Shown in pieces: positions 31,932 through 44,819 of a stretch of DNA of 64,000 nt. The notes beneath the pieces are model-generated. The model saw nothing but the letters and a program-made list of their open reading frames with translations. It did no database searches and was not told the origin of the DNA. The number at the start of each line of letters is the position of its first letter. Position 1 is the first letter of the stretch. The position numbers and the translations under genes were made by a program. The DNA comes from Gemmatimonadota bacterium. Lineage in GTDB: Bacteria; JAAXHH01. The stretch covers positions 1 through 64,000 of the forward strand of contig JAPOZT010000004.1 in assembly GCA_026705925.1 (NCBI GenBank), in the 5' to 3' direction.

Positions 31932-32172
31932 TGATACTCCTTTTGGAAGTTCAGGTTTCTCAGGATCTCTCGCATACGGTTCACCGTGTTAAGGGAAGGC
32001 CGCATCGTCAGGATAATCTACTGCGCGTGTCAAGGTCGACCAGGTGGCGTAGTCGACTCCGTGAAGCGGCCATTTTCAGGTATTTTCCTAGATCATCATG
32101 GTCATCGGCCGATACGGTCTCGCGACTCATTATGGACTTTGGCCGTACGGACGCGCCGAGTATATTCCATTA

Positions 32173-34506
32173 ATGAACCAGACCGTCCCTTTCAAAAAAG
32201 ACCTCGTGCTGGTCGGCGGCGGCCATTCCCACGTGCAGGTGATCCGCATGCTGGCCATGAAGAAGGCCCTGCGCGGCATCCGCGTCACGCTCATCTCGGA
32301 CGAGTCCACCGTCTGCTATTCCGGCATGCTGCCCGGTTGCCTGGCCGGCCTGTACCGTCCCGACGAGATGGAAATGGAACTGAGGCCGCTGTGCACCTGG
32401 GCGGGCATCCGGTTCGTCCGGGCCCGGGTGGCCGGCCTCGATCCGGCCCTCCAACAAGTCTATTTCGACGACGGCCGTCCTCCCCTTGCCTACGATGCCC
32501 TTTCGATCAACGTCGGTTCGATTCCCAGGGGCATGGACACCCCGGGCGTGCGGGAACACGCCGTGCCCACGAGGCCGCTCGGGCTGCTGCTGAAGCGGGT
32601 TCACCGGTTCGAGGAAAACCACCGGAGCGACGGCCGGCCGTTACGGATCGTCATCGCGGGAGGCGGCGCGGCGGGCGTGGAACTGGCCTTCGCCATGCAC
32701 TCGAGATGGGGAGCGCGATTCGCGCCCGTCCAGATCACCCTCGTGGATTCGCAGGCGACTTTGCTGACCGGGCACCGTCCCCGGGTCGCCGCGATCATCG
32801 GGCGGTACCTCGAAGATAAGGGGATCGCCTGGCACACCGGCCTGCGGGTCACGGGCGTGGATGAGGCGGGCATCCATTTCGAGGATCATCCGTCCCTGCC
32901 CTGCGACTTCCTGCTCTGGGCCACGGGCGGAGCGCCGCCCGGTCTGATGAAGGAGACAAACCTGGAGACCAGCGGTGCCGGGTTCATCCGCGTCCGGTCC
33001 ACCCTGCAGGCCATGGGTTATGACAACGTCTTCGCGGCGGGCGATTGTATCGAGTTTCCTTCCCGTTCCCTGCCCAAATCGGGAGTCTACGCGGTCCGTG
33101 AGGGACCGGTTCTGGCCCGAAACCTCCATGCCTGGCTCGAAAACCGGTCCATGGTTCCCTACAGGCCCCAGGCCTCGGCGCTTGCGCTGCTCATGACCGG
33201 GACGCGCAACGCCGTCGCCAGCCGGCGGCACGTCTCCTTTCACGGCCCCTGGGTGTGGCGCCTGAAGGACTGGATCGACCGACGCTGGATGCGGAAATTC
33301 GAACCGGCGCTGCTGCCGCCCATGGACCCGGCCGGCGATGCGCCGTCCGCCCTCGATGCGCCATCCACCCGTGATGCGCACCCCGCCCACGATGCGCACT
33401 CCGCCCACGCTGCGCACGCCGCCGGTGACGAAGCCGGCAAAGACCCGGCAGTGTCGGCCATGCGCTGCGCCGGGTGCGGCGCCAAGGTCGGTTCCACCGT
33501 ACTCACCGGCGTGCTCGACGAACTGGACATATTCAGCCGCGAGGAAGTTCGGATCGGCCTGCACGACGCCGACGACGCGGCAATGCTTGAGATCCCTCCC
33601 GGCCGGTCGCTGGTACAGACCGTGGACGGCTTCCGGGCCTTTACCGGCGACCTGCACCTCTTCGGCCGTATCGCCCTGGTCCACGCCGCGTCGGATCTGT
33701 ACGCCATGGGGGCCGAGCCTCACTCCGCACTGGTTACGGTCACGCTGCCCTACGCGGAAAAACTCCTGGTGGCGAACGACCTGAGACAGCTCATGGGCGG
33801 CATCGCGGAAGAGGCCCGGCGTCTCGGGGTCACGCTCCTCGGCGGGCACACGAGCGAAGGAACGGAGACAGCCGTCAGCATAACCATGAACGGCCTGACC
33901 GGCAACGACGCCGTATTCAGGAAAGGCGGGCTGCGTCCCGGCGACGGGTTGGTCCTGGCCAAGCCCGTCGGTACGGGCGTCATCCTGGCGGCCGATATGC
34001 ACCTAAAGGCCCAGGGAAGCTGGGTCGATGAAGTCCATGAAGGCATGCTGCAGTCGAATGCGGAGGCGGCCGGGGTCCTTGCAAAGGCCGGCATTCCCGC
34101 CGTCACGGACGTGACCGGCTTCGGCCTGGCGGGACACCTGGTCGAGATGCTCGAGGCCAGCGGCACGGGAGCTGAGATTGAAATCGACCGGATACCGCAT
34201 TATGCCGGCGCGGCGGATTGCGTGGCCGCCGGGGTGGAGAGTACCCTGGCGCCGTCCAACCGGGAGCATTTGCAGAAAAGATGGCAGGTGGAGCCAGGAC
34301 CCGGCGCGGCGTACACGGCGGAGCCCGGCGCGGCGGACGGGCGGGACGCCCTCCTCTTCGACCCCCAGACCTCGGGCGGACTGCTGGCCGGCGTGCCTGC
34401 CTCCGGCATCGACGAGGTAGTCGCGAAATTGCGGGATGCCGGTTACGCGCAGGCGGCCTGCATCGGACGAGTGACCGACCGGAAACGGCACCTGCAGATC
34501 CGCTGA
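32173..34506 (+). CDS. selD: Fusion of NADH-dehydrogenase-like FAD domain and selenide, water dikinase
   Basis: The C-terminal part (from about residue 430) is selenophosphate synthase, which makes the selenium donor for selenocysteine and selenouridine from selenide and ATP. It shows the CAGCGAKVGS motif with the catalytic-position Cys and not Sec, the DDAAML metal site, RIALVHAASDLYAMG and the GGHTSEG loop. The N-terminal part (about residues 10-385) is a two-dinucleotide-binding oxidoreductase: LVLVGGGHSHVQV, IVIAGGGAAGVELAFAM and NVFAAGDC. A low-complexity Ala/His/Asp linker joins them. The start at 32173 (MNQTVPFKKD) precedes the first dinucleotide fold; an earlier ATG at 32098 is possible. 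The length is 777 aa. Confidence 0.9.
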   Translation: MNQTVPFKKDLVLVGGGHSHVQVIRMLAMKKALRGIRVTLISDESTVCYSGMLPGCLAGLYRPDEMEMELRPLCTWAGIRFVRARVAGLDPALQQVYFDDGRPPLAYDALSINVGSIPRGMDTPGVREHAVPTRPLGLLLKRVHRFEENHRSDGRPLRIVIAGGGAAGVELAFAMHSRWGARFAPVQITLVDSQATLLTGHRPRVAAIIGRYLEDKGIAWHTGLRVTGVDEAGIHFEDHPSLPCDFLLWATGGAPPGLMKETNLETSGAGFIRVRSTLQAMGYDNVFAAGDCIEFPSRSLPKSGVYAVREGPVLARNLHAWLENRSMVPYRPQASALALLMTGTRNAVASRRHVSFHGPWVWRLKDWIDRRWMRKFEPALLPPMDPAGDAPSALDAPSTRDAHPAHDAHSAHAAHAAGDEAGKDPAVSAMRCAGCGAKVGSTVLTGVLDELDIFSREEVRIGLHDADDAAMLEIPPGRSLVQTVDGFRAFTGDLHLFGRIALVHAASDLYAMGAEPHSALVTVTLPYAEKLLVANDLRQLMGGIAEEARRLGVTLLGGHTSEGTETAVSITMNGLTGNDAVFRKGGLRPGDGLVLAKPVGTGVILAADMHLKAQGSWVDEVHEGMLQSNAEAAGVLAKAGIPAVTDVTGFGLAGHLVEMLEASGTGAEIEIDRIPHYAGAADCVAAGVESTLAPSNREHLQKRWQVEPGPGAAYTAEPGAADGRDALLFDPQTSGGLLAGVPASGIDEVVAKLRDAGYAQAACIGRVTDRKRHLQIR
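33336..33420. repeat. Degenerate 15/18-bp tandem repeat encoding the NDH-SelD linker
   Basis: Successive units built on GATGCGCC/GATGCGCA occur five to six times. They encode a linker of Asp-Ala-Pro/His and Ala-His units between the oxidoreductase and selenophosphate synthase domains. Confidence 0.8.
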
Positions 34507-38582: not shown

Positions 38583-39821
38583 CTATCGTCGTCGTTCTTC
38601 TCCCTTCCATGCTACTCCTGCAAATTGACGTCGCACAGCCCCGTTACCGGTAAACTGTGACAGTAGCCGGGGATTTCTCCGTTCGTAACGTACCCGGCCC
38701 GCCACGATCGCTGGATGAATGCGCAATTCCGAGGCCAGACTGACCACGCTCAACGCAGAAGGCGAAGTACGCGCCGTGCTGGCCTTCCATGTCTCTCCAG
38801 GTATCAACGCCTCCTCGGTCCACATGTCAGCCTCCTTTTCATAGGTTTCCGCCTTGCCCCGGCCGCTCTCCCGAAGTGTGAAGTCGTCGGCATAAAAAAC
38901 GCCTCTGCCTTGATCGAGATGAAGCCCGACGTGGGCGAGTTCATGCAGCAAACCGAACCAGAAACTGTCGATGCGGTCGTAACGAAGCGTAAGGCCGATT
39001 ACCGGTCGTCCGTCGCCGGATTGAAGTACCGCTCCGTCAAGATACGTTCTGGGGAGATGCGGCACTACCTCGAGCACAATGCCGTGGTCGTCCAGGAAAT
39101 CCCGAGCGAGCCGTGGTCCATATTCCAAGTTGCTCAGATGGGCGACCTCACGAAGCAATTCGAGGGTAACGGTTCCCGGAACGTAGGCACGATGCGTAGC
39201 TTTGGCGTTGGCCAGGGCCATGACACGCCAGCACCAAGCCTGAAGCGCATAGGAGTCCGTTTTCGCGTTCACCCGTTGCGAACCTCGGATTCGATACGTT
39301 GATGGTGTAATGTCAATGCCCGCCATATGGATCATTTCGGCAATCTGTTCGCCGGCGCTGTAACCTGATTCGGCACCTTCCTTTATCCAACCGAGTTTTG
39401 CCATTTTCCTGACTGGATAACGCAGGGGGTCGATATCCGCTGGTGATTCGAAGGATTCCGTCCCCGGATTCCTGAGCAACACGTCGGCCGGGATACCAAG
39501 ATGCTCATGCAACGCCCGGGCCATAGGCATGGTAATGGCGCGCTTGCCGGACAGCACTTCCGAAACTCGCGAGCGGCTCCCAATGATTGGTATAAGATCT
39601 CGAGGATGCATTCCCGCCTGTTCCATGCGGAATCGGATCGCTTCGGGAGGTTCCGGATAACCCATGGGAAAGTGCTCGTCCTCCCAGGACTCGACGAGTG
39701 TGACCAGTACGTCCAGTTCATCTCCATCCGGACTACCGTATTTGCTGCCCATAAGTTCGTCGATACGGGACAGGGTTCTTTCATAATCCGCCTCTGTGCG
39801 GATAGGTTTAATTTCAGCCAT
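38583..39821 (-). CDS. HigA-type antitoxin fused to an ImmA/IrrE metallopeptidase domain
   Basis: Residues 1-115 resemble HigA antitoxins (IRTEADYERTLSRIDELM, GDELDVLVTLVESWEDEHFP, then a helix-turn-helix with RVSEVLSGKRAITMPMARALHEHLGI). Residues about 190-400 form an ImmA/IrrE domain with the zinc motif HELAHVGLH and a downstream acidic helix with ETYEKEADMW, typical of this peptidase family. The total of 412 aa is about four times a plain HigA. It starts 2 bases after the higB stop. The helix-turn-helix probably represses the operon; the role of the peptidase in antitoxin turnover or signal sensing is inference. Confidence 0.86.
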   Translation of the reverse strand: MAEIKPIRTEADYERTLSRIDELMGSKYGSPDGDELDVLVTLVESWEDEHFPMGYPEPPEAIRFRMEQAGMHPRDLIPIIGSRSRVSEVLSGKRAITMPMARALHEHLGIPADVLLRNPGTESFESPADIDPLRYPVRKMAKLGWIKEGAESGYSAGEQIAEMIHMAGIDITPSTYRIRGSQRVNAKTDSYALQAWCWRVMALANAKATHRAYVPGTVTLELLREVAHLSNLEYGPRLARDFLDDHGIVLEVVPHLPRTYLDGAVLQSGDGRPVIGLTLRYDRIDSFWFGLLHELAHVGLHLDQGRGVFYADDFTLRESGRGKAETYEKEADMWTEEALIPGETWKASTARTSPSALSVVSLASELRIHPAIVAGRVRYERRNPRLLSQFTGNGAVRRQFAGVAWKGEERRR

Positions 39822-39823
39822 TT

Positions 39824-40117
39824 CTATATCCTTTTTGCATCAATCCCGTCGTATTGATCGTGCGTCCCGATAAACCTTATTCGTACCAATCGATGCGCGA
39901 AATCGATCTCTGTCACAAGGCGGTAGTTGTTTCCCTTGATATCGAAAACTGCTCGATTCCCACCAATTTTACTGGCGTTCCGGTACTTTTCCTTGATACT
40001 GGCCGGTGTTTTCCAGTCCTCCCTCTTCACTTCTCGGTACCAGGCGAGTAGCGGTCGTTCAGCATCAGGATGACGTTTCCAAAACTCCCTGAGCGTCTTC
40101 TTCGCAATAATCCGCAT
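39824..40117 (-). CDS. higB: HigB-type toxin
   Basis: mRNA-cleaving type II toxin of the RelE-related HigB family (97 aa). Typical segments are REFWKRHPDAERPLLAWYREVKREDW, the GNRAVFDIKGNNYRLV strand and FIGTHDQYD near the end, where the His/Tyr-rich motif is characteristic of HigB. As in higBA operons, the toxin gene comes first. The start codon overlaps an inverted repeat, which may be the operator. Confidence 0.88.
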   Translation of the reverse strand: MRIIAKKTLREFWKRHPDAERPLLAWYREVKREDWKTPASIKEKYRNASKIGGNRAVFDIKGNNYRLVTEIDFAHRLVRIRFIGTHDQYDGIDAKRI

Positions 40118-40135
40118 CGATTTCCCGAAATCGAT
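40116..40135. promoter_or_regulatory. Inverted repeat over the higB start, probable HigA operator
   Basis: ATCGATTTC and GAAATCGAT, nine bases each, are separated by CC and overlap the 5' end of higB. Such a repeat fits binding of a dimeric helix-turn-helix antitoxin. The surrounding 130 bases are AT-rich compared with the neighbourhood. Confidence 0.55.
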
Positions 40136-40270
40136 CGAAGTGATTTAGAAACAGATCATACAAAACCATGAATGTTTCCATTTTTCTTTATATTAATTCG
40201 TTACCATAAAAATAAATTGGCAAATAGCATACCTCGTCAAGCCGAATCCGTACCGACCGGGACGCTCGGT

Positions 40271-44121: not shown

Positions 44122-44565
44122 TCATCCATCAGTCCAGGGGTTGACGACTTTAACACCGGTATTGCGGAACTCACTTGCGTTTCTTGTGACAATGGTGAGA
44201 CCGCGTCGGGCCGCCGTTGCCGCAAGAAAGGCGTCCGGCAGATGGTACTCAAGCGCCTCGCCCCGACGCCGCTTAGCTTCCATAATGCGGGCGCACTCTC
44301 GCGCGTCGTTCAAGGTCCAATCGAATATACGATCCTCAAAGAGGTCATCGAGCAGGTTTTGGAATCGATCGGCGAGGGCTTCACGTCTCCGTCCGGCATC
44401 GAGAAGGCCAATGCCATTGAGGATCTCCCAGACCGTAATGGATGCAAGACCAATCCCCTGGTCGGCGATCTTATCCAGAAACGCAGCGACACGTGGATCT
44501 GGATGTGGGCGCATCATTTCTGAAATGACATTCGCATCGAGGAGCCAGGCAACAGGAGTGTTCAC
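44122..44565 (-). CDS. fitB: PIN-domain toxin (FitB/VapC-like ribonuclease)
   Basis: Toxin of a type II pair (147 aa). The acidic triad is seen as Asp in WLLDANVISEMMRP with the following Glu, Glu in ITVWEILNG and Asp in LPDAFLAATAARRGL, with VTRNASEF as the fourth acidic region. The ISEMMRP and VTRNASEF patterns are like FitB. The start is a GTG that overlaps the antitoxin stop (GTGA). The cleaved RNA is unknown. Confidence 0.87.
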   Translation of the reverse strand: MNTPVAWLLDANVISEMMRPHPDPRVAAFLDKIADQGIGLASITVWEILNGIGLLDAGRRREALADRFQNLLDDLFEDRIFDWTLNDARECARIMEAKRRRGEALEYHLPDAFLAATAARRGLTIVTRNASEFRNTGVKVVNPWTDG

Positions 44566-44819
44566 GTCTCACGCTCACTTGCGAACTCGACCTTACGGTA
44601 TGCATAGTGCCCTGACTCCGGTAGCTCGACCCCGTTTTCGGGCCCGAAATACCGCTTGAAAGCCTCGGAAGGCGATGCGCGGTGCTCAGCCTTTGCACGC
44701 TTCTCGCGGATCATATGACGGATGAATTCTTCCATAGACACGCCGACTTGTCGCGCCTCTCGTTTGAGCCAGGCTTTGTCCGCCGGATCAATGCCGCGGA
44801 CAGTGACAGTGGTACTCAT
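44562..44819 (-). CDS. fitA: Antitoxin of the FitAB/VapBC-like pair (ribbon-helix-helix type)
   Basis: 85-aa protein directly upstream of the PIN toxin. The N-terminus (TVTVRGIDPADKAWLKREARQVGVSMEEFIR, read in parts) is a ribbon-helix-helix pattern, with the strand followed by two helices. The remaining charged tail would bind the toxin. A GGGGG-rich ribosome site precedes the ATG and an inverted repeat overlaps the promoter. Confidence 0.83.
   Translation of the reverse strand: MSTTVTVRGIDPADKAWLKREARQVGVSMEEFIRHMIREKRAKAEHRASPSEAFKRYFGPENGVELPESGHYAYRKVEFASERET

What the first reader, a model, noticed from the sequence alone, without database searches (positions are those of the whole stretch)
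38583..40135. HigBA with the antitoxin fused to an ImmA/IrrE protease
The antitoxin has its own HExxH protease domain, so sensing and antitoxin removal could reside in one chain. The protein is four times the size of plain HigA. The operator-like repeat overlaps the higB start codon.
Basis: partly seen in the sequence, partly recalled or inferred. Interest (0 to 1): 0.6.

Follow-up and report, generated by a model that had tools for sequence, protein, structure and literature searches.

The report
HigB toxin with protease-fused antitoxin
A marine bacterium carries a small RNA-cutting toxin gene paired with an antitoxin fused to a protease; this pairing is a widespread two-gene relative of the known phage-defence system PD-λ-2, and this version keeps an apparently intact toxin and lacks that system's third gene.

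Summary
A HigB-family toxin gene (40117-39824, minus strand) is followed 2 nt later by a 412-residue protein with a HigA-like HTH domain (about 1-117) and an ImmA/IrrE metallopeptidase domain (HELAH, 293-297). It is not new in kind: Makarova 2009 predicted Xre-COG2856 fusions beside RelE toxins, and Vassallo 2022 tested a three-gene example, PD-λ-2, as abortive phage defence. The window proteins match PADLOC PD-Lambda-2_A (4.5e-42) and _B (1.6e-131, full length). The third gene (C) is absent from locus and genome. Of the 80 best fusion loci, 76 have higB directly upstream; the zinc-site residues are invariant in 70 of 70; both genes are under purifying selection. Two results add something. The family has a conserved operator, GTTCCC-N5-GGGAAC, in 54 of 82 promoters (0.3 expected); the window keeps two degenerate half-sites 26 bp apart (40174-40206), so the repeat at the start codon is not the family operator. 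And HigB-like proteins of C-bearing PD-λ-2 lack the conserved HigB tail in 7 of 8 cases, whereas the window type keeps it. That may explain why PD-λ-2's HigA-protease, not its HigB, was toxic, and suggests classical polarity here. Self-cleavage remains untested.

The parts
39824..40117 (-). A: HigB-family (PF09907) RelE-fold toxin, 97 aa; keeps the conserved HigB residues R55, N63, R66, G84-T85-H86, Y89
   Evidence: Pfam HigB_toxin 1.8e-29; PADLOC PD-Lambda-2_A 4.5e-42; model pLDDT 92.9 matches E. coli HigB 5ifg, TM 0.86; R66, G84, H86 invariant in a 50-sequence alignment; dN/dS about 0.08-0.13 against two congeners
38583..39821 (-). B: 412-aa HigA-like HTH / ImmA-IrrE metallopeptidase fusion
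   Evidence: PADLOC PD-Lambda-2_B 1.6e-131 over residues 1-401; Foldseek HigA 6kml/6jq4 and CapP 7t5t, PprI/IrrE 8sln/3dti; dN/dS about 0.15
39471..39821 (-). HigA/COG5499-like antitoxin and DNA-binding domain (residues 1-117)
   Evidence: phmmer to E. coli/Shigella HigA 3e-7; HTH_3 65-115; lowest dN of the three domains
38613..39176 (-). ImmA/IrrE (M78) peptidase domain (about residues 216-403); H293-E294-x-x-H297 and E328 (putative third zinc ligand)
   Evidence: Peptidase_M78 21.5 bits against a cut-off of 22; H293, E294, H297, E328 invariant in 70/70 homologues
40200..40206 (-). Predicted operator half-site 1 (TGGTAAC; consensus TGGGAAC, 1 mismatch), 89 nt upstream of higB ATG
   Evidence: Pair of half-sites 26 bp apart; 23 of 82 family promoters have this spacing, 0.06 expected
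40174..40180 (-). Predicted operator half-site 2 (TGGAAAC; 1 mismatch), 63 nt upstream of higB ATG
   Evidence: As half-site 1; congeners L018/L019 have an exact TGGGAAC here
40116..40135 (.). 20-bp inverted repeat ATCGATTTCCCGAAATCGAT overlapping the higB start codon; not the family operator, role unknown
   Evidence: weaker dyads at the same place in L018/L019

Best explanation
This is a two-gene, toxin-antitoxin-like phage-defence or stress module of the PD-λ-2 A-B type, without the third gene C. HigB (A) is probably a ribosome-dependent mRNA-cutting toxin. The HigA part of B binds HigB and, as a dimer, represses the operon from operator half-sites in the promoter. The ImmA/IrrE peptidase domain of B is kept inactive until an infection or damage signal (plausibly single-stranded DNA, as for CapP and PprI) switches it on. 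It then cuts B, in its own chain or in its dimer partner, so that HigB is freed, the operon is derepressed and growth stops (abortive infection). Shown here: gene order, domains, intact catalytic residues, purifying selection, conserved pairing and operator. Inferred: toxicity, direction of neutralisation, activating signal, cleavage and the defence role of this copy.
For: Full-length match to PD-Lambda-2_A and _B. HigB directly upstream in 76/80 best fusion loci from many phyla, with A-B spacing mostly from -4 to +20 nt. Zinc-site residues H293, E294, H297, E328 invariant in 70/70. Conserved HigB residues kept in the window. Operator GTTCCC-N5-GGGAAC within 2 mismatches in 54/82 promoters (0.3 expected), 110-fold enriched over the rest of the same loci, found again in 7 of 8 newly fetched fusion loci and, as GNTCCC-N5-GGGANC, in plain HigBA loci. 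Defence genes nearby in relatives: HsdR within 22 nt downstream, CBASS cyclases, a type I R-M operon. Published: PD-λ-2 gives Abi defence against λvir (PMC9519451); ImmA-family proteases cleave HTH repressors and PprI/CapP are activated by ssDNA (PMC10904395).
Against: In PD-λ-2 overexpressed B was toxic and A neutralised it, and C was required for defence (PMC9519451); C is absent here. No cleavage assay for this family was found in the papers searched. The window's operator half-sites are degenerate. In this genus the module is missing from its site in most genomes, so it is dispensable.
Confidence: 0.55

Rival explanations
1. Inverted polarity, as measured for PD-λ-2: B (the HTH-peptidase) is the toxic component and the HigB-like protein is its inhibitor; infection removes HigB or modifies the complex and B kills the cell.
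For: Vassallo et al. found overexpressed PD-λ-2B toxic and rescued by A (PMC9519451). A few C-less loci also have eroded HigB (L016, L017, L129, L130), as expected if HigB activity is not always needed.
Against: In C-bearing PD-λ-2 loci the HigB-like protein lacks the conserved C-terminal HigB residues in 7 of 8 cases, while the window type keeps them, so the polarity measured for PD-λ-2 need not carry over. A decayed copy in G004 kept the B N-terminus while most of higB is gone.
Confidence: 0.25
2. Ordinary HigBA in which residues 1-117 do all antitoxin and operator work; the peptidase domain senses or tethers something but does not cut the antitoxin.
For: Plain HigA of about 120-140 aa paired with HigB and the same operator type is common (about 35 hits against 10 full-length fusions in a 399-genome sample); E. 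coli HigA works without a protease domain.
Against: Catalytic residues are invariant across phyla and the peptidase domain is under purifying selection (dN/dS about 0.15), which argues for catalysis.
Confidence: 0.13
3. A stress or genome-maintenance module with no defence role in this host.
For: Single chromosomal copy between housekeeping genes (aroA and an oligopeptide-binding protein gene), no defence gene beside it, missing from the site in most genomes of the genus.
Against: Homologues sit in defence loci and beside R-M and CBASS genes, and a homologous system defends against phage (PMC9519451).
Confidence: 0.07

Closest known systems
PD-λ-2 (Vassallo et al. 2022, PMC9519451; PADLOC PD-Lambda-2)
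   Same: Gene order HigB-like A then HigA-ImmA/IrrE B; B homologous over its whole length (437 bits to the PADLOC model); operator motif shared.
   Different: Gene C (Beta_protein, PF14350), required for PD-λ-2 defence, is absent from locus and genome; HigB keeps the conserved C-terminal residues that C-bearing loci mostly lack.
Xre-COG2856 fusions next to RelE/PIN toxins (Makarova et al. 2009, PMC2701414)
   Same: This architecture was described there, including the proposal that the protease cleaves the Xre antitoxin.
   Different: Prediction only; no HigB-specific family, operator or C-gene analysis in the passages read.
E. coli/Shigella HigBA (YgjN-YgjM, PF09907 plus COG5499)
   Same: HigB fold (TM 0.86 to 5ifg), HigA domain homologous (3e-7), toxin-first order; related operator in plain HigBA loci.
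   Different: HigA there is about 138 aa without a peptidase domain.
CapP/CapH, PprI(IrrE)/DdrO and ImmA/ImmR
   Same: M78-type peptidase domain related by fold (7t5t, 8sln, 3dti); those proteases cleave HTH repressors, PprI and CapP after DNA damage.
   Different: Protease and cleaved repressor are separate chains there; here the HTH and protease are one chain paired with an RNase toxin.
RosmerTA (RmrT/RmrA)
   Same: Defence TA with an HTH-ImmA antitoxin.
   Different: B of the window has no RmrA hit in PADLOC; E. coli PD-λ-2 B has only weak ones.

Membership tests
PD-λ-2 | HigB-like component A | tested here: met
   PD-Lambda-2_A 4.5e-42, full length
PD-λ-2 | HigA-HTH / ImmA-IrrE component B | tested here: met
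   PD-Lambda-2_B 1.6e-131, 1-401 of 412
PD-λ-2 | Third component C (Beta_protein), required for defence | tested here: not met
   No PDLC03983 or PF14350 hit in the whole genome (93.96% complete) and no gene in the position next to B, which is followed by convergent aroA
PD-λ-2 | Abortive phage defence | not testable with these tools
   Needs plaque assays
HigBA type II TA | PF09907 toxin with RelE fold and conserved residues | tested here: met
HigBA type II TA | COG5499-type HigA antitoxin domain directly downstream | tested here: met
HigBA type II TA | Toxin neutralised by the antitoxin | not testable with these tools
   Needs co-expression; PD-λ-2 data show that polarity may be inverted
ImmA/IrrE (M78) metallopeptidase | HExxH plus downstream Glu ligand | tested here: met
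   H293, E294, H297, E328 invariant in 70/70
ImmA/IrrE (M78) metallopeptidase | Pfam PF06114 above gathering score | tested here: inconclusive
   21.5 against 22 bits for the window protein; an E. coli homologue scores 40.8
ImmA/IrrE (M78) metallopeptidase | Cleaves an HTH repressor | not testable with these tools
   Needs a cleavage assay
RosmerTA | RmrA-type antitoxin | tested here: not met
   No RmrA hit for B at E up to 1

The most novel reading that the evidence does not exclude
The common form of this family is a self-contained two-gene switch: one chain is sensor-protease, repressor and antitoxin for an active HigB RNase, and it needs no third gene. PD-λ-2 proper would be a derived branch in which HigB lost its catalytic tail, became the inhibitor of a toxic HTH-protease and came to depend on gene C. 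The published 'unexpected' polarity would then reflect toxin decay and role reversal within one TA family.
Probability: 0.35. Interest if true: 0.6.

Novelty: new member of a known kind. Interest (0 to 1): 0.36.

Why it matters
The architecture was predicted in 2009 and a relative was tested in 2022, so the finding itself is ordinary. The comparison makes two open points testable. Why is the HigA-protease, not HigB, toxic in PD-λ-2, given that HigB-like proteins of C-bearing loci have lost the conserved tail? And what does the ImmA domain cut in a TA module? The conserved operator predicted here gives a direct readout (a promoter reporter) for when the protease domain is switched on.

Tried and rejected
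(1) Start-codon inverted repeat as operator: rejected as the family operator; the motif lies elsewhere and the repeat is not conserved in sequence. (2) A third gene next to the window pair or in the genome: none. (3) A shared third gene downstream of B in the 80 relatives: no conserved neighbour; only pairs or trios of close relatives, and HsdR in a few. (4) Viral contigs: no relative found with the single-sequence query. (5) E. coli hits from an Acinetobacter query turned out to be λ-like prophage HigB plus a 218-aa HTH protein, not PD-λ-2. (6) Sigma-70 promoter scan upstream of higB: nothing above the consensus threshold. (7) Plasmid rows could not be used for structure prediction, so the alignment was rebuilt. 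(8) Literature: no study found that tests cleavage by a HigA-ImmA/IrrE fusion.

Full report
What is there. On the minus strand a 97-aa ORF (40117-39824) is followed after 2 nt by a 412-aa ORF (39821-38583). The first is a HigB toxin by Pfam (1.8e-29) and by fold (AlphaFold pLDDT 92.9; best PDB hits E. coli HigB 5ifg, TM 0.86). The second has an N-terminal HigA domain (phmmer to E. coli/Shigella HigA 3e-7 over residues 7-111) and a C-terminal ImmA/IrrE peptidase domain (PF06114 21.5 bits, just under its cut-off). Its model (pLDDT 83.9) matches HigA structures, CapP and IrrE/PprI. The HExxH motif is HELAH at 293-297. The host is taken to be a Candidatus Latescibacterota genome, because the two congeners with the module carry that title; several other close relatives come from MAG series that I believe, from memory of their names, to be sponge metagenomes.

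It belongs to a known kind. PADLOC models PD-Lambda-2_A (4.5e-42) and PD-Lambda-2_B (1.6e-131, residues 1-401) cover both proteins end to end. Vassallo et al. (PMC9519451) describe PD-λ-2 as a HigB-like protein, a HigA-like Xre domain fused to a peptidase, and a third component, with abortive defence against λvir. Unexpectedly, their B was toxic when expressed alone and A rescued it; C was not needed for neutralisation but was needed for defence. Makarova et al. 2009 (PMC2701414) had already described Xre-COG2856 fusions in operons with RelE and PIN toxins and proposed that the protease cleaves the Xre antitoxin. A 2023 network study (PMC10440598) places ImmA-containing antitoxins as a hub of the TA network.

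How widespread and how conserved. A scan of GTDB genomes gave 523 relatives, of which the best 80 were kept. In 76 of these 80 a HigB gene lies directly upstream of the fusion; one of the four exceptions is cut by the contig end. These are the closest relatives, so the percentage is not for all HTH-ImmA proteins. In an evenly drawn sample of 399 genomes from the phylum of a Pseudovibrio relative, 10 carried full-length fusions (one of them the centre genome itself), and 9 of the 10 had a detectable HigB. Most other hits at E up to 1e-40 (about 35) were plain HigA-sized, covering only the first 120-130 positions; 15 of the 16 of these that were inspected had HigB. H293, E294, H297 and E328 are invariant in 70 aligned fusions. 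Against two congeners dN/dS is about 0.08-0.13 for A and 0.155 for B, and about 0.15 for the peptidase domain alone. So the protease is selected for, not a passive tail.

Local history. In the genus the module sits at one place, between aroA and an oligopeptide-binding protein gene. It is intact in three genomes (window, G006, G008) and a remnant in G004 (last 27 HigB codons plus B residues 1-123). In five others aroA and the transporter gene lie next to each other, about 55 bp apart; in G009 about 1 kb without a match to A or B lies between them. One old gain with repeated loss is the simplest reading (inference; no tree of the genus was made).

The operator. But upstream of higB across the family there is a different, strongly conserved palindrome, GTTCCC-N5-GGGAAC, typically 50-65 bp before the start. 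54 of 82 promoters carry it within 2 mismatches, against 0.3 expected in shuffles, with 110-fold enrichment over the rest of the same loci. The motif was found in these data, so the strength is partly circular; loci fetched later confirm it in 7 of 8 fusions (L126 is left out because it is the same locus as L093), and plain HigBA loci carry the variant GNTCCC-N5-GGGANC. Right half-sites TGGGAAC also recur exactly 26 bp apart in 23 of 82 promoters against 0.06 expected, often flanking a TTGACA. The window lacks the full palindrome (5 mismatches) but keeps the 26-bp pair, TGGTAAC (40206-40200) and TGGAAAC (40180-40174), each with one mismatch. Its congeners keep an exact half-site at the second position. 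The predicted operator is therefore 40174-40206, and it appears weakened in this lineage.

The third gene and the state of HigB. A linked Beta_protein / PD-Lambda-2_C gene is absent from the window genome and from 57 of the other 58 fusion-bearing genomes tested with PF14350; two of those have an unlinked copy beside another ImmA-type protein. Genomes with a linked C do exist: E. coli strain C and other E. coli, G243, G441, and three from a class-wide search. In 7 of 8 such loci the HigB-like protein is only 85-92 residues long and lacks the conserved GTHxxY tail, and also the conserved Arg66 (one has Lys). Only 1 of 86 loci not selected for C lacks both Arg/Lys66 and His86, and five more are partly eroded. 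The C-bearing loci are related to each other, so these are not independent events. The catalytic role of these residues in PF09907 is inferred from conservation. PADLOC has several A models, and the truncated A proteins prefer different ones from the window's. I could not check that the protein tested by Vassallo et al. is of the truncated type.

Mechanism. The simplest account for the window type: HigB RNase held by the HigA domain, operon repressed through the upstream half-sites, and a latent protease in the same chain that cuts the HTH-linker part after a signal. ssDNA is the known signal for PprI and, as cited there, CapP (PMC10904395). Cleavage, signal and polarity are inferred. The inverted polarity measured for PD-λ-2 is the main rival; the erosion of HigB in C-bearing loci suggests that it is a property of that branch.

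Verdict. Observation confirmed; interpretation partly supported; architecture already known. The new content is comparative: operator, C-less two-gene form, and HigB erosion in the C-bearing branch.

Noticed in passing
window 44122-44819 (-): A second TA module 4 kb away: PIN-domain toxin (44122-44565, PF01850 9.9e-13) and FitA-like RHH antitoxin (44562-44819, PF22513 1.1e-8).
   Followed up: partly
window 32098-34506 (+): One ORF joins a pyridine-nucleotide oxidoreductase to AIRS/AIRS_C domains (probably a selenide water dikinase, SelD, fusion).
   Followed up: partly
L081, L092, L095 just downstream of B; L012 upstream: The HigB/HigA-protease pair sits inside type I restriction operons: a large ORF, HsdR-like in L081 and L095 and related in L092, starts 4-22 nt after B, and a plasmid copy follows N-6 DNA methylase, S subunit and other restriction genes.
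   Followed up: partly
L106, L107, L167: Beta_protein (PD-Lambda-2_C) also occurs beside other ImmA-type proteins with no detectable HigB, so C may be a partner of the protease rather than of HigB.
   Followed up: no
L104 and L105, 5935-7276: λ-like E. coli prophages carry HigB, a 218-aa HTH protein and a third small ORF beside the repressor, with the same operator 28 bp before higB (ATTCCCAAAGAGGGAAC).
   Followed up: partly
window 38583-39821, B C-terminus: The window B has 9 more residues than its two congeners, whose stop comes after residue 403.
   Followed up: no
L117 (G009), about 478-1500: In one congener the aroA-transporter gap is about 1 kb instead of 55 bp, with no match to A or B; its content was not identified.
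   Followed up: no
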